A DNA stretch of 55,042 nucleotides from Desulfocapsaceae bacterium (lineage in GTDB: Bacteria > Desulfobacterota > Desulfobulbia > Desulfobulbales > Desulfocapsaceae). The DNA lies in the NCBI GenBank assembly GCA_030653035.1, contig JAUSAB010000102.1, forward strand, positions 1 through 55,042, read 5' to 3'. Numbering within the stretch: the first letter of the stretch is position 1; the number at the start of each line of letters is the position of its first letter. Both the position numbers and the translations under genes were made by a program. Under the pieces are notes generated by a model that saw nothing but the letters and a program-made list of their open reading frames with translations, was not told where the DNA came from and made no database searches. Positions 13,071-51,864 of this stretch are shown here, one piece after another.

Positions 13071-13280
13071 GGTCGCTGCCTTTGTATTGAGTGTTTGTTG
13101 TGTTCAGATTATAAATCCTGAACCTGAACTGACTCGATGAATTAGTAAATTTATTCACAATATCCATTAAAAAAAGATGCCTGTCAAGGATAACTGCTGG
13201 ATTTTCGGCGCTGTTAGCCGCTATCCTTGAGGTTCCTTTGAATTCCCCCTTCTTTGATTTTCTGATTGAGGCAAGACACT

Positions 13281-14882: not shown

Positions 14883-15045
14883 ACATCTCACGAGCTCTTG
14901 TCTTTGTCGGAGAGCCCAAGTTCGTGGGAATCAGGATTTTTTGGTCGCCAAAGTCCATTCCTGTTGGTATGTTTCCGGTTCGGCTTTCCTGCATTGGTGA
15001 TTGTATCCGGGATGGCATCCCATGCCTTTTCTGTCTGTATTTATG

Positions 15046-30684: not shown

Positions 30685-31349
30685 TAATTTTCAGCATTGA
30701 TCAGGGTCATTTTCAGGGTGTAGCCTGTCTGGCCGAAACCCTTGAGTTCCAGATGTTCCGGGATCAGGCTGTCTCCCATTTTTCGGCATGAGCGCCCAGT
30801 AATGGAGCGGTCCATGACGTGATCGGAGGTATAACTTCGTATCTGCCAGCAGTCATCTGTCGCCGGCAGGATATCAAGGGTCCGGCCATCAATGCCGGGA
30901 TAGCGGCACACCGGCCCATTGTCGGCGGCGCGTCCGTAGCGCATGGTTTGCCCAGGAGGCGCGACAAAGATCGTCCGGACATCGCCCATCAAGCCCTCGC
31001 CAAAGGCCGGTTTGTCAAACGGGGGTACCGCCCGCTTGACTGCCAGCCCCTTGCCCTCCTGGTAAGCGGCCTCAAAGAGGGTGAATCCTTCAATCGTCAT
31101 CAAGACACAGGAAATCTCGTCTCCGGCAAGGCTGGTGACCCCGATAACCGTGCCGCCCGAACCGTCCTGCATCGAAAAATCGATGGAATGGACAAACTGC
31201 CAGCGCCCCTGGGGATAGACCGCTGCGCAGCCCTTGGCTCCGCTCACATCCTCGTTTCCATTCAGCGCGGTCAGCTCCGGCATGGGTCGCCGTTCCGCCG
31301 CACAGGCGGCAAGCAACAGGAAAAGGATGGACAGCAGGAAGGGTCTCAT
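30684..31349 (-). CDS. Outer-membrane lipoprotein, resembling DUF3261 type
   Basis: A 221-residue lipoprotein with signal peptide and lipobox LLAACA (cysteine at about residue 16). The mature part has GRWQFVHSIDFSMQDGSGG and ISCVLMTIEGFTLFEAAYQEG, a pattern like the DUF3261 lipoproteins of aryl polyene clusters; this match is from memory and only moderate. It overlaps the LolA-like gene by four bases. A LolA-like protein beside its own lipoprotein suggests a dedicated route that moves the lipid product to the outer membrane, as LolA-LolB does for lipoproteins. The stop codon TAG lies at the edge of a composite hairpin. Confidence 0.75.
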   Translation of the reverse strand: MRPFLLSILFLLLAACAAERRPMPELTALNGNEDVSGAKGCAAVYPQGRWQFVHSIDFSMQDGSGGTVIGVTSLAGDEISCVLMTIEGFTLFEAAYQEGKGLAVKRAVPPFDKPAFGEGLMGDVRTIFVAPPGQTMRYGRAADNGPVCRYPGIDGRTLDILPATDDCWQIRSYTSDHVMDRSITGRSCRKMGDSLIPEHLELKGFGQTGYTLKMTLINAEN

Positions 31350-31963
31350 CTGTCGGTGAACAGGGACGCCGGGATCTCCTGATTGAGGACCCTGTTGGTG
31401 AAGATGAGCCGGGTGGAGGAGTCGGGCCCCTCGAAAATCGTGACGGCATCGAGCAGTCCGGCCTGGTCACCAAGTTTGAGTTCAATCGTGCTGATCAGGG
31501 CGGCAATCCCCTTGTCTTTAGGGGTAAGGAGGATGGTATTTTTGTCCGGAAAGGTGACGGTGAACATCGCATTGTCGGTAAAGCGGCCGTCAAGCCAGTT
31601 GGAGATCTCGGCCAGCACCACCTGCATGGAGTCAAGCTGCATCCCCTTTTCTTCGGTCAGCCGGCCGTCGCGTTCGATGAATTTTTTCACCTTGCCGCCA
31701 TGCATGAGCAGGATGGAGTGCAGGGGCTTCTGGTATTCCCAGCGCAGAGACTGGGGGGCCTGAAAGGTAAAGGTGCCGGTGGAGATGATGGGGCGGGCGA
31801 GGATCTTCAGATGCTTTTCCTGGACGAAATCGGCCTTGACCGAGCGCAACTGGATTGGGGCCTGTGCCGCCTCGCTGTCCTTGGCCTGCGGAGTTGATCC
31901 TTCGGCAGGGGCATGGGCTGGCAGGAAAAACGTAAGGGTGAGAAAGAGAAAAAAAAGTTTCAT
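31346..31963 (-). CDS. LolA-like outer-membrane carrier protein
   Basis: A 205-residue periplasmic protein with a signal peptide ([20 protein letters not shown]) and the LolA-like fold: VKADFVQEKHLKILARPIIS, GTFTFQAPQSLRWEYQKPL, then a run of beta strands. LolA binds lipid tails in a half-barrel and carries them across the periplasm. Aryl polyene clusters hold a LolA-like gene thought to handle the polyene lipid, and here it sits between FabG and a lipoprotein. The start ATG overlaps the FabG stop by one base (TGATG), so translation is coupled. Confidence 0.88.
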   Translation of the reverse strand: MKLFFLFLTLTFFLPAHAPAEGSTPQAKDSEAAQAPIQLRSVKADFVQEKHLKILARPIISTGTFTFQAPQSLRWEYQKPLHSILLMHGGKVKKFIERDGRLTEEKGMQLDSMQVVLAEISNWLDGRFTDNAMFTVTFPDKNTILLTPKDKGIAALISTIELKLGDQAGLLDAVTIFEGPDSSTRLIFTNRVLNQEIPASLFTDR

Positions 31964-32730
31964 CAGGACATCCCGCCGTTGACTGAGATCACCTGGCCGG
32001 TGACATAGGAGGCGGCATCGGAGCAGAGAAAGGCCACCACCTTGGCCACTTCTTCCGGTCTGCCGATCCGGTTCATCGGGATCATGGTCTTGATGTGGTC
32101 CTTGGGGGCATTCTCGATCATGTCGGTCTCGATCAGGCCGGGGGCGACCACGTTGACCCTGATCCCCATACGGGCGACCTCGGCGGCGACGACCCTGCTG
32201 GCCGCGTTCAAGCCGGCCTTGGCCGCCGAATAGTTGGCCTGGCCGCGGCTGATCATGAGCGAACTGACGGAGGAGACAGAGACAATGGCCCCCTGACGCT
32301 TGCGGACCATCAGTTCCAGCACCGGCCGGGTCATGTTGTAAAAGCCGTTCAGGCTGGTATCAATGACCGACTGCCATTTTTCCGGCGGCATCATCATGAA
32401 CAAGCCGTCGGCGATGATCCCGGCGTTGTTGACCAGGATGTCGATGGATCCCTGCCGGGCGCCGATCTCCGCCACAATGTTTTCCACGGCCTGTCCGTCG
32501 CGGACATCAAACTGACAGATCTCGCCCCGACCGCCTTCTCCGGTAATTGTGGCCAGGGTCTGCTCTGCGCCTTGCTGGTCGCTATGGTAGTTGATGACGG
32601 TGTAATAACCAGATCGTGCCAGCTCGACGCAGATGGCCCGGCCGATGCCCTTGCTGCCGCCGGTGATGAGGGCGGTCTTCTGAGCCTCTTGCAAAATGAT
32701 CTTTTCGCCCAAACTCTTCGTTATGCTCAA
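31963..32730 (-). CDS. FabG-type 3-oxoacyl-ACP reductase (SDR)
   Basis: A 255-residue short-chain dehydrogenase. The NAD(P) motif is [12 protein letters not shown] follows; the catalytic residues are Ser in VSSVSSL and Tyr-x3-Lys in YSAAK; the C-terminus is [15 protein letters not shown], the FabG ending. It reduces 3-oxoacyl-ACP to the 3-hydroxy form with NADPH. The start is a TTG at 32730, with GAGG about 8 bases upstream; no ATG lies in the first part. It is the only ketoreductase in the window, so it should serve all the ketosynthases. Confidence 0.9.
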
Positions 32731-32842: not shown

Positions 32843-33286
32843 TTATTGCTCGCCCGCCTGAAAAAGTTGCAGGGTGGCCCTGCCGATTATCTGATTGTCC
32901 ATTGTCAGTTCGCAGGAGACTTCCCGCAGATTTTCAAAACTGTAGGTGTTTTCAGCCCTCGCCATGATGCTGCTGCCCAGGGGCAGGCAATCGATAGCAA
33001 AATCAGCCTTTTTGATGCCCACGATCCAGCCCATCTGATTGGAGTCCCGGCCCTTGGTCCGGATCCGGTCCCAGCCGTTGCAGATCCCGGCGGTCTGGGC
33101 GGCCAGCTCCACCAGAATCAGCGGATGCACGCCGTTCTCATCGGCCATCGGCCACGACGAATCGACCAGAAAAAGGGCGCGGGCCGTCTTGCTGTCAACC
33201 TCAAGGATCTCCTTGACCAGCAGCATGTTGCCGCGATGGGGAAGAAGGTCTTCGAGGGTGAGATCGGAGAGTGTTGTCGTGCTCAT
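32843..33286 (-). CDS. ApeP-like hotdog 3-hydroxyacyl-ACP dehydratase
   Basis: A 147-residue hotdog-fold protein. The start LEDLLPHRGNMLLVKEILEVD and the HPLILVELAAQTAG helix match the FabA/FabZ-like ApeP subunits of aryl polyene systems. His and Glu of the active site (VHP..., ...VELAAQ) are kept. ApeP works with an ApeI partner to remove water from 3-hydroxyacyl-ACP. The likely partner here is at 43138. It is the first gene of the minus-strand FabG/LolA operon and is divergent from the ACP-3/KS-CLF operon. Confidence 0.85.
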   Translation of the reverse strand: MSTTTLSDLTLEDLLPHRGNMLLVKEILEVDSKTARALFLVDSSWPMADENGVHPLILVELAAQTAGICNGWDRIRTKGRDSNQMGWIVGIKKADFAIDCLPLGSSIMARAENTYSFENLREVSCELTMDNQIIGRATLQLFQAGEQ

Positions 33287-33607: not shown

Positions 33608-33874
33608 ATGGATAAGCTTATCGCCGAGCTGAAGGTCAAGATTATTGATATCCTCAATCTTCAAGACGTGAGCCCTGAGAATTTCGATGAAAACGCCCGG
33701 CTGGTTGGTGGCGATCTGGGCATTGACTCCATAGATGTTCTGGAGATGGTGGTCATGGTGGAAAAAGACTATGGTGTTGTCATCAACAGCCAGGAAATCG
33801 GCGAGAAGGTCTTTTCTTCCCTTGCCGCCCTTGCCGGATATATCAAGGAAAACCTGCCCGGCTCATCAACCTGA
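33608..33874 (+). CDS. Acyl carrier protein (ACP-3)
   Basis: An 88-residue acyl carrier protein. The phosphopantetheine serine lies in LGIDSIDVLEMV (about residues 37-48). It ends one base into the start of the KS-CLF fusion gene (TGATGG), so the two are translated together, as ACP and KS/CLF are in type II PKS systems. It is the first gene of the right-hand plus-strand biosynthetic series. Confidence 0.93.
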   Translation: MDKLIAELKVKIIDILNLQDVSPENFDENARLVGGDLGIDSIDVLEMVVMVEKDYGVVINSQEIGEKVFSSLAALAGYIKENLPGSST

Positions 33875-36018
33875 TGGGGAAGCGGGTGTACATTGCCGGT
33901 GCGGGCATTATCAGTCCGCTGGGCAAGGGCCTTGCGGCGACAGTTGAGGCGCTGCAGGCCAATTCTTCGGCCATCAGGCCGCTGGATCTTTTTCCGCTCC
34001 TGCATGGAGAACCTTTGCCGGTGGGGCAGGTCCGGGGACTGGATGAATCATCCTCTCTGCCCAGAACGCATCGTCTGGCCCGGATTGCTGCCATACAGGC
34101 CATGGCCGGGGGCAGTCAGCCGCCTGATGCAGTTATTCTGGGCACTACCACCGGCGGCATCTTGACCACAGAGCAGTTGCTCAGGGATAATGTGGGCGAC
34201 AAGGAGTTGTACCGCTATCACGGGTTAAACAGTGTCGCCGAGTATATTGCCAGAGAGACCGGTTGCCGCGGCCCGGCCCTTGCGGTTTCCACTGCCTGTT
34301 CGTCAGGAGCTGTTGCCATTGCCATGGCCCTGGAAATGCTGCGCAGCGGCAAGGCGAAAACGGTTCTTGCCGGAGGAGTGGATTCTCTGTGCCGCCTGAC
34401 CTATTTTGGTTTTCATTCCCTGCAGCTGGTGGACAAAAAAGGCTGCCGTCCTTTTGATGCGGATCGGCATGGGATGGCGGTGGCGGAAGGTGCGGCCATG
34501 CTTTTGCTGACCACCGAAAGGCCAGATACCCCTCTGGCTGAACTCCTTGGCGCCGGTCTTTCCTGCGATGCCTATCATCCGGCCGCGCCCCACCCCGAGG
34601 GCCGAGGCGCTCTCATGGCCATGTGGGCGGCCCTTACTGATGCCGGTCTTGAACCGGAGGACATTGACTATATCAATCTACACGGGACCGGCACACCGGA
34701 AAACGATCTGGTCGAATCTAAGGCCATCAAGACCCTCTTTGTCACGCCGCCTCCGCTTTCCTCCATCAAAGGGGCGATGGGCCATAGTCTGGCCGCTTCC
34801 GGCGCCATTGAGGCGGTGGTGTCGGCCATCGCTGTTTTCCAAAACTTTCTGCCTGCCAATACCGGTTGGGAGAAGTTGGACCCAGCCCTTGGTCTCACCC
34901 CGTTGACGCAGCCGATAAGTCAGCCGGTAACGGCCGTGCTCAGCAACTCTTTCGGGTTTGGCGGCAATAACGGCTGTCTGGTGATCACCCAAGCAGACAG
35001 CGTGCCAGCATCGCCTGCGCCCCGAGGGCCTCGTGCCGGGCTGGCCGTCCATGGCAGGTCCTGTGTGTCCGGCTCAGGGAATACTGCGGCCACCATGTCC
35101 CAACTTGTCCAGGGACTCCCTGTTGCCGGTATGGTGGATCTTGACAGCCTCTCAGAAAACCTGCCGCCGCGTCTGGTCCGCCGTCTGAAACGGCTGCCGC
35201 GAATGACGTTGTCCCTGGCGGCGGCTGCCCTGGCAGATTCCGGTCTTGAGGAAAAACCATCCGCCGTGTTTATGGGCACCGGCTGGGGTGCGCTCTCGGA
35301 AACGTATGATTTTTTGACCCGGCTTGCTGAATCGCAGGAACAGTTTCCCAGTCCCACTGATTTTGTCGGCTCTGTGCATAACGGGCCGGCCGGTCAGGCG
35401 GCCATCATGTTCGAGGCCACCGGGGCCAATATTACCACCAGTGGCGGTGATTACTCCTTTGAGCAGGCGTTGCTGGCCGCCGACCTGATGATGAAGGAAG
35501 GGGATGAGCGCAGCCTTGTGCTCGGCGTTGATGAGGGCCATCAGGCGCTGTCTCCTTTGCTTGATCCCTCCATTGCCCCTGCAACGCTTCTGGCCGATGG
35601 CGGCGGGGGGTTGTGTCTGAGCAGAACCAGCAACGGCGCGCAATGTCTTGTTCGGGTTCCCTTTTATCAGAGCAGCGCCACTGAGGGGGCCATTGATTTG
35701 CTGATCGAGACCCTGGGCGGAGTCCAGATCTTGAAGAGCAAATATGCGTTGGTGCTGGCGGGGATTCCGGCAGCGGTCCGGGAAGAAGGCGAGGCCCAGT
35801 TGGCACGGTTTGTTGACCAATCCGGATGCCAGGCCCCGGTGATCCGCTATCGCGAGTTGACGGGTGAGTTTGCCTCGGCCTCGGCCGTGGCCGCGGTCAT
35901 GGCTGTTTCCTTCCTGACTGAGCGGCAGCTGCCGGCAGGAGAGGAAGACGGCAAGAATGCCATCCTGGTGCTTGGTCTGGGACCATATCTTTCGGCCATG
36001 GAATTCTCCCGCCCATGA
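33874..36018 (+). CDS. Ketosynthase fused to a chain-length-factor-like domain
   Basis: A 714-residue protein made of two ketosynthase-like halves. The N-terminal KS (1 to about 380) has the full triad: Cys142 in STACSSG, His270 in NLHGTGTP and His304 in KGAMGHSLAAS, and ends in SFGFGGNNG. The C-terminal half (about 395-714) keeps the fold (VFMGTGWGALSET, FVGSVHNGPAGQAAI), but the active-site cysteine position reads TTSGGDYS (about 521-528). That is the pattern of a chain length factor. In type II and aryl polyene systems KS and CLF are separate proteins that form a heterodimer; here they are covalently joined. ACP-3 precedes it and a B12-radical SAM gene overlaps its end. Confidence 0.9.
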   Translation: MGKRVYIAGAGIISPLGKGLAATVEALQANSSAIRPLDLFPLLHGEPLPVGQVRGLDESSSLPRTHRLARIAAIQAMAGGSQPPDAVILGTTTGGILTTEQLLRDNVGDKELYRYHGLNSVAEYIARETGCRGPALAVSTACSSGAVAIAMALEMLRSGKAKTVLAGGVDSLCRLTYFGFHSLQLVDKKGCRPFDADRHGMAVAEGAAMLLLTTERPDTPLAELLGAGLSCDAYHPAAPHPEGRGALMAMWAALTDAGLEPEDIDYINLHGTGTPENDLVESKAIKTLFVTPPPLSSIKGAMGHSLAASGAIEAVVSAIAVFQNFLPANTGWEKLDPALGLTPLTQPISQPVTAVLSNSFGFGGNNGCLVITQADSVPASPAPRGPRAGLAVHGRSCVSGSGNTAATMSQLVQGLPVAGMVDLDSLSENLPPRLVRRLKRLPRMTLSLAAAALADSGLEEKPSAVFMGTGWGALSETYDFLTRLAESQEQFPSPTDFVGSVHNGPAGQAAIMFEATGANITTSGGDYSFEQALLAADLMMKEGDERSLVLGVDEGHQALSPLLDPSIAPATLLADGGGGLCLSRTSNGAQCLVRVPFYQSSATEGAIDLLIETLGGVQILKSKYALVLAGIPAAVREEGEAQLARFVDQSGCQAPVIRYRELTGEFASASAVAAVMAVSFLTERQLPAGEEDGKNAILVLGLGPYLSAMEFSRP

Positions 36019-37361
36019 AGATCCTGCTCATCTCCCCCAATACCCTTACCGTTCCCTATCCCGTCTATCCCCTTGGTCTTGATTATGTCGCCGGGTCTAT
36101 TGGCGCGGAGCATCAGGTCAGGATCGCGGATCTGAATATTCATTCGCTTGCGGTTCTCGATGAGATTCTGCACGATTTTTTTCCGGACATTATCGGCCTG
36201 TCCTGCCGCAATATTGACAACACCGAGGCCGGTGATCCCCTGTTTTTTATCAGTGAATACCGCAAGCTGGTGGTCTGGCTGCGGGAACGCTCAACCGCCA
36301 CCCTTGTCTGCGGCGGCAGTGGTTTTACCATCATGCCGGATCGTGTCTTTGCGGCCCTGGGGGTGGATTACGGGATTATCGGTGAAGGAGAGCGGTTCGG
36401 TCTGCTGGTGGATGCCATTCACAGTGGCCGGGAAGCGGAGGAGATCTCCGGCGTGATCTCCGCCGCCGCCCCGGCAGAGCTTCCCGGCCCCTGGGCTGGT
36501 ACGCAGGCGCGTAAATTCCATTCCGATGCCTCTCATGTGGATTTTTATCTCAGAAATGGGGGGATGCTCAGTCTGCAGACCAAACGGGGCTGCTCCTTTC
36601 GCTGTATCTATTGCCCCTATCCTCATATTGAAGGGAAAAGGCACCGGCTGGTACCGCCCGATGCGGTGGCCCGGACCGCCATGGAACTGCAGGAGGCCGG
36701 GGCAAGATATCTGTTTATCACCGACTCGACCTTTAATTCGGATGTGGCCCACAGTCTGGATGTGGCCAGGGCCTTCAAGGCCGCCGGGGTTTCCATCCCC
36801 TGGGGTGGATTTTTTGCCCCGCTCCGGTTGCCGTCTGATTATTTTTCCATCATGGCCGATGCCGGTCTCAAGCATGTAGAGTTCGGCACCGAGTCGATGT
36901 CGGCGGCCATGCTTGCAACCTACCGGAAACCGTTCGGCATTGATGATGTCTATGTTGCCCACAGCCAGGCCCGGGATGCCGGATTGCTTGTGGCGCATTA
37001 CTTTCTTCTGGGAGGGCCGGGGGAGTCTGCCGCTACAATCAGAGAGACTCTTGATCATATTGAGAGGCTCAAGCGGACGGTGCTCTTTTTCTTTATCGGC
37101 ATTCGTATCTATCCGCACACCGCCCTTTATGATATTGCCCTTGAGGAGGGCAGGATCACCCCGGAAACAGATATGTTGCGCCCGGTCTTTTATCAGGCTG
37201 AGGCCATTGAGCGTGACGCGATTGAAGAGTTGATCACGACGCGAGCGGACAAGCGCGTCAACTGGATTGTAGGCTCGGGCGGCGCCACGAGCGCGGCCAC
37301 CGTCAGAAAGATGTATGATCGTGGCTATTCCGGCCCCTTGTGGGAATATCTGGCCCGCTAA
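36015..37361 (+). CDS. B12-binding radical SAM protein
   Basis: A 448-residue enzyme with an N-terminal cobalamin-binding domain (MKILLISPNTLTVPYPVYP, PDIIGLSCRNID, LVCGGSGFT) and a radical SAM domain with CSFRCIYC (about residues 195-202), preceded by TKRG. Its start overlaps the KS-CLF stop by four bases (ATGA), so it is a core part of this operon. Its 3'-terminal 78 coding bases are repeated at 43017-43098, behind the RHS island. Before the insertion the next gene of the operon was probably the dehydratase at 43138. Confidence 0.9.
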   Translation: MKILLISPNTLTVPYPVYPLGLDYVAGSIGAEHQVRIADLNIHSLAVLDEILHDFFPDIIGLSCRNIDNTEAGDPLFFISEYRKLVVWLRERSTATLVCGGSGFTIMPDRVFAALGVDYGIIGEGERFGLLVDAIHSGREAEEISGVISAAAPAELPGPWAGTQARKFHSDASHVDFYLRNGGMLSLQTKRGCSFRCIYCPYPHIEGKRHRLVPPDAVARTAMELQEAGARYLFITDSTFNSDVAHSLDVARAFKAAGVSIPWGGFFAPLRLPSDYFSIMADAGLKHVEFGTESMSAAMLATYRKPFGIDDVYVAHSQARDAGLLVAHYFLLGGPGESAATIRETLDHIERLKRTVLFFFIGIRIYPHTALYDIALEEGRITPETDMLRPVFYQAEAIERDAIEELITTRADKRVNWIVGSGGATSAATVRKMYDRGYSGPLWEYLAR

Positions 37362-37511: not shown

Positions 37512-40500
37512 TTGTTAAATACTGTTGTGGGGTATCACATGTTTTTAAAAATCACTTGTCAGAAAAATAACAGTCCAACGTATGCATGGTTGATGTTATT
37601 CGTTTTGTCTTTCTTAATCTTTGACATCACTCCATTGTCTGCGGCTGCGTTGCGTCTTGACGCAAATTTTACCCCCAGTTTTACTCATACCCAGGCTGGG
37701 TTTGCCTATCTCACGGACATTAAGGAACTCAATGATGGAAGAATTATGGTTGGTGGATGGTATGATTTCGTCAACGGGACGCCTCGTGGCCGCATCGCCC
37801 GACTGAATTCTGACGGAAGTCTGGATACAGGATTTAACCCAGGGGTTGGGGTTGATTATGATGTGAAAGCCATTGAGGTGCAGGCCGATAACAAAGTTAT
37901 TGTCGTCGGCTATTTTTGGAATGTAAATAATATCGCCAAAAATAATGTCGCCCGCCTGAATGCTGACGGGAGTGTCGATACTTCATTTACCGCTAATACT
38001 GATTCCTCGGTTTGGGATATTAACCAGGACAAGAATACCGCCAATGATCCTTTCTCTGCCGTAAGCGGCCATTTTTTTCTCGGGGGGCAGTTTACATATG
38101 TTAATGGCACTGAGCGTCGACATGTAGCGAAACTGACTCCGCAGGGGAGCCTTGATACCACATTTAATACCGGTTCTGGGATTACCAGCGGAACCAGGGT
38201 ATGGACGGTCGCAGCCTTACCTGAAAGCAAGGTGTTAGTGGGTGGTGATTTTACAGGATTTAATACCCATAGCTATTCCAACCTTGTTCGTCTTTCTGCC
38301 TCAGGAGCCGTAGATACTGCATTTTCTATTGGTTCAGGGGCTAACTCGATTGTAACGAGTCTTGCGGTTCAGCCTGATGGAAAGTATCTGGTTGGCGGAG
38401 CGTTTACCACCTTCAACGGCACCGGGCATAGCGGCATTGTGCGCCTTCTCAGCACAGGCGCGATCGATCCGTCATTTAATTGCAATGTCACTGGCGGTTA
38501 TGGTGAAATTCGATCTATCAGCCTGCAGAGTGATGGGCATATCATCATTGGAGGAAATTTTACCACCGTCAATGGTTCTTCTCGTCTTAACATTGCCCGC
38601 CTGAATCCCAATGGCAGTCTTGATATGGAGTTTGGTACTGAGGCGGTAGTTAATGAGACAGTTACCACAGTGGCTGTGCTCGGACAGAATCAGATTGTCA
38701 CGGGGGGACATTTCACTCAAATCAATGGGCAGGCGCGGGAGAAGATTGGCCGGTTTGCCGTTGATCCGTCATTAGGTGGTCCCGCTGCTAATCCGCATAC
38801 ACTCTTTGCCGGCGGCAAGGATGATTGGCGTCGCGTTAATCTACCCAAGGCCTTTGTTAATACGGGTAGTCTTGATGTTTTAGCCGAGGGGACATTGTTT
38901 TATATGCCCACACTGGGACCATCGTTGTTCGCCCGTCTTTCTTATAACTCTTTTCTTTATACGGAATCGACCGGCAGTTTTGGTAGCCATTGGCGTTTTC
39001 TCTATGAATCCTCTCTCACGCAACAAGGCCCTACTCAGGTTGTGTTGCAAAAAGGGGCCGGTGACCGGGAAACCTTTGTGAGCAATGTTAATTTGGCAAC
39101 GGCGACTCCGGCTTCACCAGTGGTGCTGAGCCCCATGCAGGGAAATTTTAATCAACTGACATCTTATGGGACATATCTGCTGTATAAGGAGAAAGACACC
39201 GGGTTTGTATATCGTTTTGACGCTCCAACGCTTGGGCAGAAGGCGTATTTGACAGAGGTTGCAGATAAAAACAATAACGCCTTGACAATATCGGTTGACC
39301 TCTTGACAGGGCGTATCAGCTCTATTACCGACCCCGCCAACAGGCAACTCCTTTTTACCTATACGGCTGGGCGATGTTCTAAAATTACAACTCCCGATAG
39401 CCGAACCATCGAATTTACCTATGACGCATCGGGTCAATTGATCCAGATTAAAGATATGATGGGTTATCTTGGCAAGTACGCTTACACGAACGGCGATTTA
39501 ACCTCCACCAATATAGACGAGGATAGTTCCACATATACCTATAGTGACAAAAAGTGGGGCACTGGGAAGTATGCTTCTAAGGTTACCGCCGCAAATGGTA
39601 TCACGCAGATTGAGCCACTCAATGGCAGTATCAATCAGGTGCGATGGACCACACCGACTGGGAGCGCTACCATTGTTGCAAGCACTGCGGGAAAAACTGC
39701 CGGCACGAAAGATCCATTAGGCGCAATGAGTAGTTTTGCATATGTTGACGGTCTGCCGACAAGTTTTAGTGATGCTAACGGAAAAACCAAGGTGTTCGAG
39801 TACGATGGTCGGGGAAATATTACCAAGGCCACAGATGCGTTGTCGCATTCATTCCTGTATTTTTATGACGCAAATGACAACTTGATCGAGCGTCGAGATG
39901 CCCTGGGGAAGAAGTGGCTATACGAGTTTGACGCCAAAAACAATTTGACAAAAATCAGCTATCCCAATGGAGCAACAGATGTCTTTACGTATGATGCCCA
40001 AGGACGAATGGTGACATATTTAGATAAACGAAATAAACAAACCTCATATACTTATGATTCTTATGGGAATTTGCTGAACACGACGTATCCAGATGGCGGA
40101 GTGCTAAAATATTATTACACTTCAAATGATGCATATACCCGTTGCTCGAAGATTGTTGATACGCGCAATAAGGAAAAGCATTACACCTATGATGCGAACA
40201 ATCGGATTACAGAAATTTCATACGGATCGACATCGGGCATTAAGGTGACCTATACCTATGACGCGTTGTCACTGCTGTCAGTTAAAGATGAACGAGGATT
40301 TACGACACGCGTCGAACGAGACGATTTTGGCCTGATTATCAGGTTGATTGATCCCTTGAACGCTTCTACCAAGTTTCAATATGACGCGAACAATAATCTT
40401 ATACAGCTTGAGGATGCGTTAGGGCGAGTCAGTAAAACCGCGTTTGATGCCGCCAATCATCCAAGTATCACCACCGACCCGATGAATCATGTCTTAAAAC

Positions 40501-42383
40501 GATATTATGACCCAGAGGGCAATCTTACCTCGATTATTGATCAGAGGTCGAAGACAACCCATTTTACCTATGATGATAATAACCGTTTGAAGACCGTTAG
40601 CAATCCATTAGATCATAGTATCTCTAATACGTATGATGATAATGGAAGACTTGCCAGTGTAGTGAACGCCAAAGGGGCGGTTGTGGCGTACAGTTATGAT
40701 TCGGTTGGCAATATGCTTACAAAATCTTTTAATGGCGTGTTGCAAGTGGCGTATAGTTATGATAACGCTGGTAATTTGACAAATGCCAATCACAGTACAA
40801 TCGGAAGCACGACGTATACCTACGACGAAAAGGGCCGGATTGAAACGATTACCTGGCCCGATGCCAAGGCGGTAACATATGGATATGATACAGAAGGAAA
40901 TGAAACCAGCGTGACCTACCCCGACGGGCTCGTTGTCTCTTCGCAATATGATTTGTTCTGCCGCCGTAAATTGCCTGCGGCCTTCCGGCACGGCCCGGTT
41001 GATGATGTCAGTCCACATAAAGAGAAGGCAAATCAGGCAACCAAGATAGCATGGAACGGAAGCAGTATTGACTTTGAATACGATCAATCGGCTAATTTGA
41101 TCAAAGAAACTCGCTTAAATGGCACTGTTTCGTCTTACAGTTTCAACGCAAAGCGTAAAGCAACGAATGTTAATCATAGCTTAGGTCTCACCTCGTTTCT
41201 TACATTGACTAATACGTATGATGTGATTGGTAATGTTGCAATGTCGTTGAATACCGGCATGATCCCTCCCCCGTTTACCTCCATGGCTGTCAACAACAGC
41301 TTTGATAACGCCAACAGCATGACTTCTTTTGGAAGTACAGCGTATACCAGTGATCTTGATGGCAATGTCACGGCAATAGGATCGAGCTTTTCGGCCAGTT
41401 ATGATGCCGAAAACAAAATTGTTTCCAGTACCATGAATGGGATAACAACGACCTATTCATACGATGGTTCGGGAAGGCCTTACCGTATTGTCAAAGCTGG
41501 GGTAACCTCGTATTATCACTGGGATACTAAAGGGAGGTTGCTCTTTATTAGCAATGCTGCCGGGACAATAATTGCGCGGTACGTATATCGGGGCGCGCGT
41601 CTTGTGGCGCAACAAGTACAAAATGGCGATTGGTATTATTATCATTTTGACACGATCGGCAATACACTGGCCTTAACTGATGGCAGCGGGCAGGTCGTAA
41701 CCAAATATGCCTACAACCTTTTTGGTCTCAAGGCTGTTGTGGAAACATCTATTTTCAATCCATTTACCTTCGTCGGTCAATATGGCACTATTGAGCTTGC
41801 TGATGGCTTATATTTAATGGGTAATAGATTGTATGACGCCTCAACAGGTCGTTTCCTCCAGCGAGATCCTCTGGGAATGACTGGCGGGTTGAACTTGTTT
41901 GTTCATGCCGGTAATAATCCCATTAACTCTATCGATCCGGAAGGAACAGAAGAAGTTGACCCTGGAGATATTGAAGATGTTCCAGAAGAACAGCGACTTA
42001 AAATAAAGAGCGGTACTGCCGATTTGAATTCGGGGGAACTTCCTGAGGATGGTGATGCCAAAGACGATAAAGTAGTATTTGATGCAATAGGCGACGTCGG
42101 TCGTTCTCTTGCTAATACAGCTGAAGATCTTCAAGAATTGAGTGGTAATATTCCGTTACTTCCGATTCCTGGGAATAATTTTGTAACAGCAGCACGACGA
42201 GCACGGGATGGAAAAAATGGTGAGGCCGCTTGGGAAGTTACAAAAGGGATTGTGAGTTTGATCCCTGGTTATGGTCAAGTAGCCGGCGCTGGTATTGATA
42301 TCAGCGAAGCCCTGATAAAAGTAGCACAGGCATCTTCACAATCACCGCCAAGCCCAATATATAAACAACAGTATGAGCGTTAA
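37512..42383 (+). CDS. RHS/YD-repeat protein with delta-60 N-terminal repeats
   Basis: A 1623-residue exported giant protein. The N-terminus has a hydrophobic export signal (AWLMLFVLSFLIF); ATG 37539 is an equally good start. Residues about 60-430 hold seven or eight delta-60 repeats (GRIARLNSDGSLDTGF, NNVARLNADGSVDTSF). Residues about 660-1440 hold YD repeats (ATDVFTYDAQGRMVTYLD). The RHS core ends with STGRFLQRDPLGMTGGLN and INSIDPEG near residue 1477. The last 146 residues are the variable tip (FVTAARRARDGKNGEAA), whose activity I cannot assign. A G+C-rich stretch near 40960-41000 (CRRKLPAAFRHGPVDD) breaks the YD pattern. No clear immunity gene follows. It is an island gene interrupting the biosynthetic operon. 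Confidence 0.9.
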   Translation: MLNTVVGYHMFLKITCQKNNSPTYAWLMLFVLSFLIFDITPLSAAALRLDANFTPSFTHTQAGFAYLTDIKELNDGRIMVGGWYDFVNGTPRGRIARLNSDGSLDTGFNPGVGVDYDVKAIEVQADNKVIVVGYFWNVNNIAKNNVARLNADGSVDTSFTANTDSSVWDINQDKNTANDPFSAVSGHFFLGGQFTYVNGTERRHVAKLTPQGSLDTTFNTGSGITSGTRVWTVAALPESKVLVGGDFTGFNTHSYSNLVRLSASGAVDTAFSIGSGANSIVTSLAVQPDGKYLVGGAFTTFNGTGHSGIVRLLSTGAIDPSFNCNVTGGYGEIRSISLQSDGHIIIGGNFTTVNGSSRLNIARLNPNGSLDMEFGTEAVVNETVTTVAVLGQNQIVTGGHFTQINGQAREKIGRFAVDPSLGGPAANPHTLFAGGKDDWRRVNLPKAFVNTGSLDVLAEGTLFYMPTLGPSLFARLSYNSFLYTESTGSFGSHWRFLYESSLTQQGPTQVVLQKGAGDRETFVSNVNLATATPASPVVLSPMQGNFNQLTSYGTYLLYKEKDTGFVYRFDAPTLGQKAYLTEVADKNNNALTISVDLLTGRISSITDPANRQLLFTYTAGRCSKITTPDSRTIEFTYDASGQLIQIKDMMGYLGKYAYTNGDLTSTNIDEDSSTYTYSDKKWGTGKYASKVTAANGITQIEPLNGSINQVRWTTPTGSATIVASTAGKTAGTKDPLGAMSSFAYVDGLPTSFSDANGKTKVFEYDGRGNITKATDALSHSFLYFYDANDNLIERRDALGKKWLYEFDAKNNLTKISYPNGATDVFTYDAQGRMVTYLDKRNKQTSYTYDSYGNLLNTTYPDGGVLKYYYTSNDAYTRCSKIVDTRNKEKHYTYDANNRITEISYGSTSGIKVTYTYDALSLLSVKDERGFTTRVERDDFGLIIRLIDPLNASTKFQYDANNNLIQLEDALGRVSKTAFDAANHPSITTDPMNHVLKRYYDPEGNLTSIIDQRSKTTHFTYDDNNRLKTVSNPLDHSISNTYDDNGRLASVVNAKGAVVAYSYDSVGNMLTKSFNGVLQVAYSYDNAGNLTNANHSTIGSTTYTYDEKGRIETITWPDAKAVTYGYDTEGNETSVTYPDGLVVSSQYDLFCRRKLPAAFRHGPVDDVSPHKEKANQATKIAWNGSSIDFEYDQSANLIKETRLNGTVSSYSFNAKRKATNVNHSLGLTSFLTLTNTYDVIGNVAMSLNTGMIPPPFTSMAVNNSFDNANSMTSFGSTAYTSDLDGNVTAIGSSFSASYDAENKIVSSTMNGITTTYSYDGSGRPYRIVKAGVTSYYHWDTKGRLLFISNAAGTIIARYVYRGARLVAQQVQNGDWYYYHFDTIGNTLALTDGSGQVVTKYAYNLFGLKAVVETSIFNPFTFVGQYGTIELADGLYLMGNRLYDASTGRFLQRDPLGMTGGLNLFVHAGNNPINSIDPEGTEEVDPGDIEDVPEEQRLKIKSGTADLNSGELPEDGDAKDDKVVFDAIGDVGRSLANTAEDLQELSGNIPLLPIPGNNFVTAARRARDGKNGEAAWEVTKGIVSLIPGYGQVAGAGIDISEALIKVAQASSQSPPSPIYKQQYER

Positions 42384-42437
42384 AAATGGGTTTTGCCTAA
42401 TTATGCAGAATGAGTAGTCAGAAAAGATAGTAACAGG

Positions 42438-42971
42438 GTGAAAATAATGAATCTACGGAGCATTGGCTTTTTCTTTTTGATGGTGACATTGCTGTGGCCG
42501 ACGGCATGGGCTGGTGCTGTCGCATACACCTACGATAGTCTTAACCGATTGATAAAAGCTGAATATGAGTCGGGTGTTCAAGTCACCCACACTTATGATG
42601 AGGTGGGTAATTTAACTTCCATTGCACAAATACAGGTCTATCCACCGAGCGCGCCGATATTGAACAGCATTGATCCTGGCCCCGGTAGTGCAACGCTTGT
42701 TTTTTCTGTACCTGTTTATAATGGTGGGCTACCAATTTCAATCTATACAGCTACTTGCATGGCCACTGGTCTAGTTACTCGAATTGCCATTGGCAATGGT
42801 TCCCCACTTATTGTCTTAAATTTGACAGAGGGGGTGACCTATGAGTGTTCGTTAACGGCTACTAACAGTGGGGGATTTACGAGTGTTGCTTCAACGGTTA
42901 TGACAGTAATAGCAGATCCTAAGTTTCCTTGGCCTATGTTCCTGCCCGCCATCATAAAGGGTGCAAACTAA
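42438..42971 (+). CDS. Small secreted protein: YD repeat, Fn3-like domain, FPWPMFLPAI end
   Basis: A 177-residue exported protein. It has a signal peptide (SIGFFFLMVTLLWPTAWAGA), then two YD units (YTYDSLNRLIKAEYESG and THTYDEVGNLTSI). A fibronectin III-like domain follows (about 65-160; PPSAPILNSIDPGPGSATL). The end is PKFPWPMFLPAIIKGAN, the C-terminal motif shared with the proteins at 8256 and 48589. It looks like a shortened version of the RHS type of protein. It lies 54 bases after the RHS gene and may be its partner. I know no function; an immunity role is unlikely because it is exported. Confidence 0.75.
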   Translation: MKIMNLRSIGFFFLMVTLLWPTAWAGAVAYTYDSLNRLIKAEYESGVQVTHTYDEVGNLTSIAQIQVYPPSAPILNSIDPGPGSATLVFSVPVYNGGLPISIYTATCMATGLVTRIAIGNGSPLIVLNLTEGVTYECSLTATNSGGFTSVASTVMTVIADPKFPWPMFLPAIIKGAN

Positions 42972-43615: not shown

Positions 43616-43885
43616 ATGACTAACGACACTGCACAAACAACCATCACTCGCATCGCGGAAATTATCATCAATGAGCTGAAGCTCGAAGATGTCACCTCCC
43701 AGACCTTTGACCCTGACCTTGATCTGGTCGATGAGGTGGGCATTGACTCCATGGATCTGGCGACTATTGCCTTGGTCCTGCGTGACGAATACGGTATCCG
43801 GATTGATGAAGATGATTATCCCAAGTTGACCACCGTGCGCATCATCGCCGAGTACATCAATACCAAGCTGACCAGTGGCGAATAA
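43616..43885 (+). CDS. Acyl carrier protein (ACP-4)
   Basis: An 89-residue acyl carrier protein with the phosphopantetheine serine in VGIDSMDLATIAL (about residues 41-53). The stop is directly followed by the ATG of the next radical SAM gene. It lies between the ApeI-like gene and two paralogous radical SAM genes, so its acyl chain could be the substrate of those enzymes. That is inference from position. Confidence 0.93.
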   Translation: MTNDTAQTTITRIAEIIINELKLEDVTSQTFDPDLDLVDEVGIDSMDLATIALVLRDEYGIRIDEDDYPKLTTVRIIAEYINTKLTSGE

Positions 43886-48588: not shown

Positions 48589-51500
48589 ATGAGGGGTGTG
48601 CTGCAAAAAATGAAGTGTCTGGGGGGGGGGGGGCTTGCTGGTGATAACGCCATGAAAATCGGCAGGTTTGCCCAAGTTTTGCTGTTTATTGCTGTTATGT
48701 TTCTTGAACTACCTGCCTATGCTCAAATACCCACTGATGGTTTGGTGGGGTATTGGAGTTTTGATGATGGCACTGCCAATTTGACTGCTGGCTCAGCCAA
48801 TAACGGCCAGCCAACGAGCGCCGTCACTTTTGGCCCTGGGAAAAGTGGGATGGCGGCAGTTTTTCAGGGGGTGGATAATCCCGGTCATATTTATATTCCA
48901 AACTCAGCAGCCTTGCAGTTTACAAGTGGGGCGACCTATTCCGTGTGGGTAAGGGTGGATGCGCTTAAAGCGATGGATGGAAGGGGAAATACCGTTACAA
49001 GTTATGGGGGAGGAACTGTTTTTGCAAAAAGTCATGATAGAATTGGAGCGGCATTTGGATTCTCTGTGAATTCAGCAAATGAAGCTGGCGCAGGGGTAGG
49101 TTCCTTTGCATCGTGGGCAGCAGGGCAGAGTGACCCTTTATGGACACCTCAAAAGCAGGTTGGTGATTGGGCGCACTTGACCTGCATTTTTTCAGCATCG
49201 TCCGGTATCAAGATTTATGTAGATGGCCAATTGTACCGGACATCTACAAACCCTGTTCTTTTTGCAGACATGAACGGACAGGATCTTTTTATAGGGAAGT
49301 TTTCTGACTCCTGGTATCCGTTTTATGGGGCAATTGATGAAGTCCGCATTTATAACCGAGTGCTGAATGAAGCCGAGATTGCTGAGCTTGCAGGAGGTCT
49401 CACCCAATCCCCCGGCTCTTTCGTCTTCTCCCCCATCTCCAGCCCGGTGGAACCAAACACCTGCTTCCCCGTTCGCATAGAGGCACGCACCGCCGGTGGC
49501 ACTCTGGATACAACGGTAAACGGGTATGCGACGTTGAGTGCGAATTTTGGAGGTGTTTCGTCAAAAAGCCTTTATTTTAATAATGGAGTCGCGGTTCATG
49601 GTTGTATTACAGTTCCATCACCAGGGAAAAACAAGCAGTTGACCGCGCAGGGTCTTGGTTTGAGCGGAACAAGCAATTCTTTTGAATGTGTTGGGACTTG
49701 TTTTGGTTCCATTGCATTGTTTCTTGATCCTGATACGACTGCTATCCTTTTTGACCAAACAACTAATGCTGAAGTTGGGAGACAGGTTTCAACGGAAGAT
49801 CCGCAATCGAATATTTACATGGTAAAATTTGCCAATGTCCCCTGTGGAGCCTATAGATTGAGGGTCGAAAAAGGACCTCTGTATAAAGACAATATTGAGT
49901 TGAATGTCACAGGGGGAAATGTGAAAGTGGAGAAAATATCTTTACCACAACCCGGGATAAAAGGCACCCCGGTGATTTTGATACCAGGTATCATGGGGTC
50001 TTCACGTCCCGTTGGGAAATGGGATATTGTACCACTCTTAGGGGATAGTTACCCTGATAAATCTCTTCGATTTCATGGCCCTCTTGTAATGGGTTGGAAT
50101 GATTTAGAATTACAGTTAATAAAAGCAGGATATACAGTTTTCCGTTGTCCTTGGGATTGGCGGAGTGGAATTGGAAGCAAAAATGGAACAGAAGCGATAC
50201 GAATGAAAGAGAATGTAAAAAATTTTCTTATTCCAGTTATTGATGAGGCGTTGAGGCATCCCGATTCTACTACTGGTAAGGTAAGTATCGTGGCTCATAG
50301 TATGGGGGGGCTGGTGGCTCGGGCATACATTCAAAGTGCTGATTTGTATCGGAATGATGTGGAAAATTTGGCCTTAATAGGAGTTCCTCATTTAGGGTCT
50401 GTAAAGCCTTATTTTTTGTGGGAGGCTGGAGATGCCATAACTGGGGATAAAATTTTTGATGATACATTTTATACTGATGTAATAAAACGAATGTGGGAAG
50501 ATACATATGGTCAAGATAACTGGAAAAATTGCAATGCAAAAGCGATTAAAGAATTTATTCATGAAAAAAGTCCTTCCCTCCGCCAGCTTATGTCGACAGA
50601 CTATTGTTTAATGAAGGAAGATGGTACCACATTGCCTGTAGAGTCTGATGGGAATGTTAATGTTTGGTTGAATGAATTAAATAACGGCACAAATGGATTC
50701 AAGAAACCTACAGATGTTTTTAGCAAGGATTTTGGCGCCAAGGTTAAGACCAGAGTGTTTTTAAGCAATAGTGGATATGATAGCACATTAGAATATATTC
50801 AGATTAATAATAAAATATTTACATATCCTGATAAAACTACATCTTATGTGGATGGTATTCCGTCTGATGTCGGGCCAATTACTTGTGCGGAAGAAAAAGC
50901 TGGGAAAAAAGCCACAAATAATAATGAGCTTTTTTTCAGTGGAGATGGGACAGTGCCTTTGGATAGTGCCGCTTATCCACTAAAAGCAGGGTGGGCGGAT
51001 CGTGCAGAGTTTATTAGTGGAAAGTCACATACGTTCATGATCTGGAGCTTTCTTCAAGATATACCAGATTTTCTTGATGGAAATCCGGGCGTAATCACGG
51101 AACCTAAATCAGTGGTAATTTCCAAAGAAACAACAAAAGACGCTGTGAATATGACGCCACAGCTTGGTTTTTCAGTAATTGGTAATGCCGGGTTATTGAT
51201 TACAGATACCTTGGGTAGAAAGAGCGGCATTTCACCAGATACGCATGCATTGGTAAATGAAATTCCTGGGGCAGATATTGTCGCTGATGAAACGGGTGCG
51301 TCTGTTTCTTTCAGTGACGCTCCGGCTGGCCAATATCACCTCACTTATTTTGGTTATAGTGAACAAAGTTTCTCCTTATCTGTTTCTGCCTTTAATGCAT
51401 CTGGTGAAGCGGAAGAAGAGTCGTTTAAGGGGTATAAGCCAGCATCTCCACAAACCATAGTGATACAGTATAATCCGTTGTTGGAAAACCAGATTGTTGT

Positions 51501-51864
51501 CCAGCCAGTTGTTGCCGAGCCTCAGGAAATGGAAGCTGTTTCATACTCCTGCGGATCAGCGAAGTGTACACAATTACGATGGAAACCAACAGTGGCGATA
51601 GGAGTGAAGGAGTACGTGATTTATCGCAGATTATTGCTTGAATCTATGTATTCTGAATTGGCTCGGGTACCGGTGACGGCTACCAATTATAAAACCGGAG
51701 AAGCATGGAACAGTGATGAGTCTTTGCCGCTTAATGGCTATAAAGTGTCAGCAATCAAGGCGGATGAGACAGAGAGTTTCTTTGCCAAGGATAAAGAGGG
51801 CGAATGTGTCTTCCCTTGGCCTATGTTCTTGCCGGCAATAACTCATGGAACCCAGCACCCTTAA
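48589..51864 (+). CDS. Secreted LamG-lipase protein with FPWPMFLPAI end and poly-G tract
   Basis: A 1091-residue exported protein. From the ATG at 48589, with strong AGGAGAGG, the frame passes through 13 consecutive G (48621-48633) into the signal peptide MKIGRFAQVLLFIAVMFLEL, whose own ATG at 48652 has a weak ribosome site. Domains: LamG-like (about 50-265; LVGYWSFDDG, GAIDEVRIYNRVLNEAEIAEL), an Ig-like part (about 270-360), and an LCAT/lipase-type alpha/beta hydrolase (about 458-870; TPVILIPGIMGSS, nucleophile Ser570 in AHSMGG). The protein ends with VFPWPMFLPAITHGTQHP. It probably acts on lipids or esters outside the cell. It is an A+T-rich island gene between two ketosynthase genes. Confidence 0.88.
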   Translation: MRGVLQKMKCLGGGGLAGDNAMKIGRFAQVLLFIAVMFLELPAYAQIPTDGLVGYWSFDDGTANLTAGSANNGQPTSAVTFGPGKSGMAAVFQGVDNPGHIYIPNSAALQFTSGATYSVWVRVDALKAMDGRGNTVTSYGGGTVFAKSHDRIGAAFGFSVNSANEAGAGVGSFASWAAGQSDPLWTPQKQVGDWAHLTCIFSASSGIKIYVDGQLYRTSTNPVLFADMNGQDLFIGKFSDSWYPFYGAIDEVRIYNRVLNEAEIAELAGGLTQSPGSFVFSPISSPVEPNTCFPVRIEARTAGGTLDTTVNGYATLSANFGGVSSKSLYFNNGVAVHGCITVPSPGKNKQLTAQGLGLSGTSNSFECVGTCFGSIALFLDPDTTAILFDQTTNAEVGRQVSTEDPQSNIYMVKFANVPCGAYRLRVEKGPLYKDNIELNVTGGNVKVEKISLPQPGIKGTPVILIPGIMGSSRPVGKWDIVPLLGDSYPDKSLRFHGPLVMGWNDLELQLIKAGYTVFRCPWDWRSGIGSKNGTEAIRMKENVKNFLIPVIDEALRHPDSTTGKVSIVAHSMGGLVARAYIQSADLYRNDVENLALIGVPHLGSVKPYFLWEAGDAITGDKIFDDTFYTDVIKRMWEDTYGQDNWKNCNAKAIKEFIHEKSPSLRQLMSTDYCLMKEDGTTLPVESDGNVNVWLNELNNGTNGFKKPTDVFSKDFGAKVKTRVFLSNSGYDSTLEYIQINNKIFTYPDKTTSYVDGIPSDVGPITCAEEKAGKKATNNNELFFSGDGTVPLDSAAYPLKAGWADRAEFISGKSHTFMIWSFLQDIPDFLDGNPGVITEPKSVVISKETTKDAVNMTPQLGFSVIGNAGLLITDTLGRKSGISPDTHALVNEIPGADIVADETGASVSFSDAPAGQYHLTYFGYSEQSFSLSVSAFNASGEAEEESFKGYKPASPQTIVIQYNPLLENQIVVQPVVAEPQEMEAVSYSCGSAKCTQLRWKPTVAIGVKEYVIYRRLLLESMYSELARVPVTATNYKTGEAWNSDESLPLNGYKVSAIKADETESFFAKDKEGECVFPWPMFLPAITHGTQHP
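48621..48633 (+). repeat. Poly-G tract of 13 bases
   Basis: Thirteen G in a row between the strong start codon (48589) and the signal-peptide ATG (48652). Tracts of this length change length by slipped-strand pairing and are a classic source of phase variation. With 13 G the two starts are in the same frame. Confidence 0.9.

What the first reader, a model, noticed from the sequence alone, without database searches (positions are those of the whole stretch)
33874..36018. Ketosynthase and chain-length factor fused in one polypeptide
The N-terminal half has the Cys142-His270-His304 triad; the C-terminal half keeps the fold but has Gly-Gly where the active cysteine should be. In type II PKS and aryl polyene systems these are two proteins. 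A covalent KS-CLF would fix the stoichiometry and the chain-length pocket.
Basis: partly seen in the sequence, partly recalled or inferred. Interest (0 to 1): 0.75.

Follow-up and report, generated by a model that had tools for sequence, protein, structure and literature searches.

The report
One-chain ketosynthase–chain length factor fusion
In sulphate-reducing bacteria, the chain-building enzyme of an unusual anaerobic lipid pathway and its inactive partner, which are two proteins in related bacteria, are joined into one protein; the fusion is real and conserved, but similar one-chain pairs are known elsewhere.

Summary
The ORF at 33874-36018 (+, 714 aa) is real. Residues 1-372 are a ketosynthase with Cys142-His270-Lys299-His304. 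Residues 389-714 form a complete condensing-enzyme fold without the catalytic residues; their nearest solved relatives by sequence are chain length factors (CLFs). One correction: the Cys-equivalent is Asp526, and Gly524-Gly525 lie just before it.

It is not an artefact. All 24 close loci found carry both halves in one frame, as do 20 of 395 genomes sampled across the phylum. Both halves are under purifying selection; the linker is nearly fixed in length but free in sequence. The 35 fused KS domains form one clade, grouped with KS from loci that have separate, usually abutting or overlapping KS and CLF genes. One fusion of neighbours explains this.

The predicted chain matches the PfaC KS-CLF didomain over both halves (TMq 0.82), so covalent KS-CLF is not new in principle, and two Streptomyces plasmids hold an apparently independent stand-alone fusion. 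New here is a conserved fusion in ladderane/aryl-polyene-like clusters, often beside a TIGR04072-type radical SAM gene. It suggests that the non-canonical FabFs of anammox clusters are CLFs. Product, intramolecular pairing and chain-length control are inferred.

The parts
33608..33874 (+). acyl carrier protein gene, directly upstream; its TGA overlaps the fusion's ATG by one base (TGATG)
   Evidence: PF00550 33.7 bits; overlap read; ACP upstream in 22 of 22 assessable close loci
33874..36018 (+). KS-CLF fusion gene, 714 aa
33874..34989 (+). ketosynthase half, residues 1-372 (C142, H270, K299, H304)
34297..34299 (+). codon of nucleophile Cys142
   Evidence: C in 35 of 35 fused and 22 of 22 unfused KS
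34990..35037 (+). interdomain linker, residues 373-388
   Evidence: 15 residues in 17 of 20 relatives aligned (14-17 in all 20), sequence highly variable
35038..36015 (+). chain-length-factor half, residues 389-714
   Evidence: PF13723; nearest PDB chains are CLFs; fold
35449..35451 (+). codon of Asp526, equivalent of the KS nucleophile Cys
   Evidence: hhalign C142-D526; D in 35 of 40 fused copies
36015..37361 (+). B12-binding radical SAM enzyme, TIGR04072 (lipid/ladderane type); ATG overlaps the fusion's stop, 4 bases shared
   Evidence: 373 bits, cut-off 360; a homologue is downstream in 19 of 21 assessable close loci and nearby in 11 of 16 further fused loci of the phylum
31963..32730 (-). 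FabG/FlxB-like ketoreductase, divergent operon
32843..33286 (-). ApeP-like dehydratase (below cut-off)
   Evidence: PF22817 25.5 bits, cut-off 27
31346..31963 (-). LolA-like lipid carrier
   Evidence: PF03548 56 bits

Best explanation
The protein is a stand-alone, covalently joined KS-CLF condensing enzyme. The N half loads the growing acyl chain on Cys142 and decarboxylates malonyl-ACP with His270/His304. The catalytically dead C half packs against it across the usual condensing-enzyme dimer interface, within the same chain, and shapes the acyl tunnel. It elongates a chain on the ACP encoded immediately upstream, with the neighbouring FabG-like KR and ApeP-like DH; the B12-radical SAM enzyme translated next is expected to modify the product. 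The gene most simply arose once, by fusion of adjacent KS and CLF genes, and was inherited within the phylum, with one probable transfer to a gammaproteobacterium. Shown by sequence: domain content, conservation, one clade of fused KS, relatives with separate genes. Inferred from models: the intramolecular pseudo-dimer. Inferred from homology only: chain-length control and a polyene or aryl-polyene/ladderane-like lipid product.
For: KS and CLF assignments. C half nearest to 9s5h_C, 6kxd_B (Iga12) and 6qsp_B (ApeC); N half nearest to 9s5h_B, 7f28_B and 6qsp_A, chains of the same or the same kind of KS-CLF entries. Model pTM 0.92; top Foldseek hit 6riw PfaC KS-CLF, TMq 0.82 over 880 columns. C half alone has the full condensing-enzyme fold. 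One frame in 24 of 24 close loci and in 20 of 20 strong hits among 395 genomes. dN/dS against the nearest relative L007 0.157 (KS) and 0.193 (CLF). Fused KS one clade, SH-aLRT 100 and 99. Of the 28 weaker, separate-CLF loci that I fetched (of 78 such places), 27 have a KS directly upstream; 22 of 24 measured pairs lie within -14 to +2 nt.
Against: TMq 0.82 comes with rmsd 7.0 and 19% identity, so the domain arrangement is only broadly matched. The VIA second look lists only single-domain rows for the full model. The C half scores weakly against any known CLF (41 bits at best), and the ApeC of 7f28 ranks below two FabFs; by fold FabF and CLF chains are intermixed. Trees are midpoint-rooted, so direction (fusion rather than fission) is parsimony only. 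Nothing tests catalysis, pairing, chain length or product. The radical SAM gene is absent downstream in 2 of 21 close loci (L015, L019) and not found in 5 of 16 wider ones (L097, L103, L104, L110, L113, two of them with under 2 kb of downstream DNA); the ACP is not directly upstream in 2 of those 16 (L099, L107).
Confidence: 0.82

Rival explanations
1. The halves pair between two chains: KS of one with CLF of the other, giving a (KS-CLF)2 assembly, or KS-KS homodimers with CLF wings; the linker merely fixes 1:1 dosage.
For: A linker of about 15 residues does not by itself decide between cis and trans pairing; the prediction was of one chain only.
Against: Single-chain model is confident (pTM 0.92) and matches the PfaC didomain over both halves. 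An intramolecular arrangement is the one proposed for gammaproteobacterial PUFA synthases (PMC13311796, passages).
Confidence: 0.15
2. The C half is not a CLF but a divergent enzyme of its own (e.g. decarboxylation or acyl transfer using Asp526/Glu665).
For: Acidic residue at the Cys position in 37 of 40 fused copies (D 35, E 2) and Glu at the second His position in 30 of 40 (Q 6, H 1, R 1, gap 2); W471 in 39, L474, T477, H502 and N503 in 40 of 40; purifying selection.
Against: No Cys-His-His; best solved relatives are CLF partners; unfused homologues sit right behind a KS gene.
Confidence: 0.1
3. The fusion is an assembly or frameshift artefact, or the C half is decaying.
For: 21 of the 24 close loci are labelled MAG.
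Against: Same frame in 24 of 24 close loci, including Desulfobulbus rhabdoformis DSM 8777 and Thiorhodococcus mannitoliphagus DSM 18266, and in two single-contig genomes, G020 and G035; both halves under purifying selection.
Confidence: 0.01

Closest known systems
PfaC KS-CLF didomain of PUFA synthases (PDB 6riw)
   Same: KS then CLF in one chain; best whole-chain fold match; called a KS-CLF didomain and proposed to dimerise intramolecularly (PMC13311796, PMC12895367, passages)
   Different: Part of a multidomain megasynthase; 19% identity over the Foldseek alignment. Ours is 714 aa with condensing-enzyme domains only, and the host genome has no PfaA over the cut-off
ApeO-ApeC of aryl polyene clusters (PDB 6qsp, 7f28)
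   Same: KS half nearest to ApeO after 9s5h_B; C half hits ApeC; ACP, FabG-like KR, LolA and an ApeP-like DH nearby
   Different: Two proteins; ApeC keeps one thiolase fold only (PMC8358021, section read), whereas our C half has the complete fold
FabF / non-canonical FabF pairs of anammox candidate ladderane clusters (kuste3605/3606, kuste2804/2805) and PDB 9s5h
   Same: 9s5h_B and 9s5h_C are the best sequence relatives of the two halves. 9s5h_C carries V163, N298, Y300, G302, K328, E333, Q342: 7 of 7 checkable residues of the 8 listed for Kuste3606 (alignment; table), so it is probably that protein or an orthologue (inference). Glu at the second His position is shared
   Different: Separate genes in anammox (passages); one chain here
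Iga11-Iga12 (ishigamide KS-CLF, PDB 6kxd)
   Same: C half hits Iga12 at 40 bits, profile positions 44-298, also with Gly-Gly before the Cys position
   Different: Two proteins, actinomycete polyene pathway
Streptomyces sp. NBC_00876 / NBC_00536 plasmid proteins (788 / 787 aa)
   Same: Stand-alone KS-CLF-like fusion in a type II FAS/PKS-like cluster
   Different: Its KS falls outside the clade of the window's fused KS and of their unfused relatives, so apparently an independent fusion; about 32-34% identity

Membership tests
KS-CLF condensing enzymes | KS with Cys-His-His triad | tested here: met
   35 of 35 fused KS domains
KS-CLF condensing enzymes | partner of condensing-enzyme fold lacking the nucleophilic Cys | tested here: met
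   Fold; Cys at that position in 0 of 40 fused copies
KS-CLF condensing enzymes | partner nearest in sequence to known CLFs | tested here: met
   Top three PDB hits of the C-half profile are 9s5h_C, Iga12 and ApeC; Iga12 and ApeC are CLFs per PMC8358021, 9s5h_C is inferred
KS-CLF condensing enzymes | KS and CLF form a pseudo-symmetric heterodimer | tested here: inconclusive
   pTM 0.92 and TMq 0.82 to 6riw, but rmsd 7.0
KS-CLF condensing enzymes | CLF half sets chain length | not testable with these tools
   needs enzymology
PfaC of PUFA synthase | KS-CLF order in one chain | tested here: met
PfaC of PUFA synthase | further domains of a PUFA megasynthase | tested here: not met
   714 aa, only condensing-enzyme Pfam families; TIGR02813 0 of 1 over cut-off in the own genome
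Aryl polyene ApeO-ApeC | two separate proteins, CLF half-sized | tested here: not met
   one chain; complete C-half fold
TIGR04072-associated (ladderane-type) lipid cluster | TIGR04072 gene over cut-off in the cluster | tested here: met
   36015-37361, 373 vs 360 bits; only match over cut-off in the genome
Ladderane producers | ladderane lipids present | not testable with these tools
   The paper found none in Desulfotalea psychrophila, which has a syntenic cluster (PMC2649909)

The most novel reading that the evidence does not exclude
The fusion is a 'Rosetta stone': one protein shows that the catalytically dead, non-canonical FabFs of anammox candidate ladderane clusters (kuste3606, kuste2805), once suggested to recruit a ready-made ladderane moiety, are chain length factors of the KS encoded beside them. 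TIGR04072-type clusters would then be anaerobic, polyene-making type II synthases whose chain length is set by a KS-CLF pair, fused in one lineage of sulphate-reducer-type bacteria.
Probability: 0.55. Interest if true: 0.6.

Novelty: new variant of a known kind. Interest (0 to 1): 0.42.

Why it matters
KS-CLF pairs set chain length in polyene and aromatic polyketide pathways. A natural, small, single-chain version is convenient for crystallography and engineering, since stoichiometry is fixed and one gene is expressed. Because it sits in clusters related to the unsolved ladderane pathway, it also suggests a role for the 'non-canonical FabF' genes there. The idea of a covalent KS-CLF is not new, so the step is moderate.

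Tried and rejected
Artefact or decayed domain: rejected. Fusion confined to the family of the window: rejected; 20 of 395 phylum genomes, in several families, and a gammaproteobacterium, Thiorhodococcus mannitoliphagus, nested among Desulfobulbus in the KS tree, which I read as gene transfer (contamination of that 47-kb contig was not tested). 'Categorically new covalent KS-CLF': rejected because of PfaC and Streptomyces (only 10 of 1288 plasmid records were listed, 1 of 1288 covers 80% or more of the query in one place). PUFA synthase in the own genome: the PfaA model rings only below cut-off, as it does in 11 of 14 control genomes.

Results that led nowhere: the VIA second look on the full model lists only KS-half matches; no KS-CLF didomain is among its 50 rows, which says nothing. 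phmmer with an unfused CLF at E <= 1e-10 found nothing; at 0.1 it gave 21 weak KS and CLF hits. No paper on this fusion was found in the searches. In one search the phrase 'KS-CLF didomain' occurs only in listed papers on PUFA synthesis (5 of 7 papers listed), and '9S5H' matched only an unrelated linguistics paper. The library lacks most subscription journals, so absence proves little. Passages of PMC9821293 and PMC9902471 held nothing on the fusion.

Rows dropped before counts. Tree: L001-L006 and L059-L068 (duplicate places), L014, L021, L022, L027, L029, L030 (truncated or frame-broken), identical rows, segments under 330 aa, and all but 29 of 77 other-KS sequences; 90 rows used, of which 22 are KS of the 28 unfused loci; 4 of 28 unfused loci (L075, L088, L091, L093) not measured; the nearest possible start codon was taken mechanically; 40 C halves = window + 39, L021 left out; window plus 20 of the 24 fused loci (L014, L021, L022, L029 left out). 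Unfused loci fetched: the 26 best of 78 weaker places plus two from the window's order.

Full report
THE OBSERVATION. The ORF at 33874-36018 (+) encodes 714 aa without a stop. Pfam places PF00109/PF02801 on the N half and PF13723 (Ketoacyl-synt_2) on residues 428-555. NCBIfam's best model is PRK09185, on residues 3-374 only (338 bits, below its cut-off of 407). In the C half, profile-profile alignment pairs C142 with D526 and H304 with E665. So the Gly-Gly (524-525) sits just before the Cys position, which holds Asp in 35 of 40 fused copies (E 2, N 2, S 1).

FOLD. AlphaFold2 with 21 sequences gives pLDDT 84.3 and pTM 0.92 for the whole chain; the C half alone, with 18 sequences, gives pLDDT 88.9 and pTM 0.91. 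The C half matches complete condensing enzymes (Z about 32, 321 of 334 residues, rmsd 3.3). Foldseek intermixes FabF and CLF chains, and the listed VIA rows are FabF or KS chains, so the fold alone does not say CLF. The whole chain's top Foldseek match is 6riw, the PfaC ketosynthase-chain length factor, TMq 0.82 over 880 columns with rmsd 7.0. This favours an intramolecular KS/CLF pairing but does not prove it.

WHAT THE C HALF IS. With a profile of 18 C halves, the top PDB hits are 9s5h_C (41 bits), 6kxd_B (Iga12, the ishigamide CLF; 40 bits) and 6qsp_B (ApeC; 36 bits), ahead of all FabFs (at most 24.5 bits); the other ApeC, 7f28_A (22.8 bits), ranks below two FabFs. The best hits of the N half are 9s5h_B, 7f28_B and 6qsp_A, the partner chains in those entries. 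ApeO-ApeC is described as a KS-CLF heterodimer with a half-sized CLF in PMC8358021 (sections read). A Bacteroidota record (Aureispira plasmid) annotates the separate homologue as 'beta-ketoacyl synthase chain length factor', directly after ACP and KS; it scores 121 bits with the C-half profile.

CONSERVATION. The genome-contig scan returned 52 loci: 24 (L007-L030) carry the fusion and 28 do not (L052 is a possible further case). All 24 have KS and CLF signals in one frame; 5 are cut by a contig end and 1 has a broken N-terminus. Titles name Desulfobulbaceae, Desulfobulbus, Desulfobacterales, Desulfobacteraceae or Deltaproteobacteria, and the gammaproteobacterium Thiorhodococcus mannitoliphagus; 21 of 24 are MAGs. 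Among 38 near genomes, own included, 15 have it at full length and two more in pieces at contig ends. Among 395 genomes of the phylum, 20 (own included) have a strong C-half match (E <= 3.5e-97), all 20 in frames of 720-865 aa. The next hit is at 1.9e-26; the 78 weaker places lie mostly in frames under 480 aa, a few in longer open frames (517-821 aa). Against the nearest relative L007, dN/dS is 0.157 (KS) and 0.193 (CLF); the linker is 15 residues in 17 of 20 relatives (14-17 in all) but highly variable in sequence. A tether of nearly fixed length and free sequence between two constrained domains is what a working fusion should show (inference).

ORIGIN. I fetched 28 of the 78 weaker places (the 26 best and two from the window's order). 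A KS gene lies directly upstream on the same strand in 27; the other contig starts too close to tell. In 24 measured pairs the KS stop and nearest possible CLF start lie within -14 to +2 nt in 22, overlap by 4 nt in 13, and the two genes are in different frames in all 24. In a KS tree of 90 rows the 35 fused KS form one clade (SH-aLRT 100), joined at support 99 to 19 of the 22 unfused KS; three unfused KS lie further out. One change of state suffices. The root is a midpoint, so that fusion came after separation rests on parsimony. The simplest history is one fusion of abutting neighbours through a small frame-changing event.

CONTEXT. In the close loci the ACP is upstream in 22 of 22 assessable and a homologue of the TIGR04072 radical SAM gene downstream in 19 of 21 (not in L015 and L019). 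In 16 further fused loci over the phylum, the ACP is directly upstream in 14 and such a radical SAM gene nearby in 11, so the link is strong but not absolute. In the window, ACP, fusion and radical SAM overlap by 1 and 4 bases, as in a translationally coupled operon. Around them lie a FabG/FlxB-like KR, LolA, an ApeP-like DH (25.5 bits, cut-off 27), an AMP ligase, a DarB-like ketosynthase, further KS genes, acyltransferases and several radical SAM genes. This is the kind of cluster that Rattray et al. (PMC2649909; outline, passages, one section and part of the discussion read) compared between anammox bacteria and Desulfotalea psychrophila, which made polyunsaturated hydrocarbons but no detected ladderanes.

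LINK TO ANAMMOX. In K. stuttgartiensis a FabF and a non-canonical FabF have consecutive locus tags (kuste3605/3606, kuste2804/2805; PMC4790861, passages). The printed alignment of 9s5h_C shows V, N, Y, G, K, E, Q at seven positions, identical to those listed for Kuste3606; the eighth listed position is not covered. I infer that 9s5h is that pair or its orthologue; no tool named its organism. If so, both halves of the window's protein have the anammox pair as their closest solved relatives. The fusion then supports reading the odd FabFs as CLFs rather than as recruiters of a ladderane building block, the alternative that Rattray et al. discussed.

PRECEDENT. Covalent KS-CLF is known as the PfaC didomain, proposed to dimerise intramolecularly (PMC13311796 and PMC12895367, passages). 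Two Streptomyces plasmids carry stand-alone 788 and 787 aa KS-CLF-like fusions, annotated only as beta-ketoacyl-ACP synthase family proteins; they group outside the window's clade. So the finding is a new variant of a known kind: a small, conserved, apparently independently evolved KS-CLF fusion in an anaerobic lipid cluster.

LIMITS. Product, chain length and oligomeric state are untested. The genome scan used short peptide patterns and finds close relatives only. Phylum counts are from a sample of 395 genomes. Function statements for KS, CLF, KR and DH rest on established knowledge of these families.

Noticed in passing
37512-42971: RHS/YD-repeat protein (1623 aa) plus a short RHS fragment sit between the radical SAM gene and the second ACP (43616-43885); in L007 that gap is about 0.5 kb, so this looks like an insertion into the cluster.
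   Followed up: partly
48589-51864: 1091-aa ORF with a lectin-like Laminin_G_3 domain and an LCAT/PGAP1-like alpha/beta hydrolase, between two KS genes that are adjacent in L007; a second apparent insertion.
   Followed up: partly
L114:6944-9310 and L115:6947-9310: Apparently independent stand-alone KS-CLF-like fusions (788 and 787 aa) on plasmids of Streptomyces sp. NBC_00876 and NBC_00536, within type II FAS/PKS-like clusters.
   Followed up: partly
L023: Thiorhodococcus mannitoliphagus (gammaproteobacterium) carries the same syntenic cluster, nested among Desulfobulbus in the KS tree: probable transfer of the whole cluster.
   Followed up: partly
L015, L019, L110: Fused genes not followed by a TIGR04072 homologue; downstream lie LolA-like and B12-radical SAM genes of another kind, so the fusion seems to be used with another module.
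   Followed up: no
L052:2245-4410: 722-aa open frame in an Actinomycetota MAG with a KS match and a weak CLF match (21 bits); possibly another fusion.
   Followed up: no
16501-17658, 13266-14762, 15001-16497: DarB-like ketosynthase beside a phytoene-desaturase-like oxidoreductase and a B12-radical SAM gene, suggesting a resorcinol-type lipid branch in the same region.
   Followed up: no
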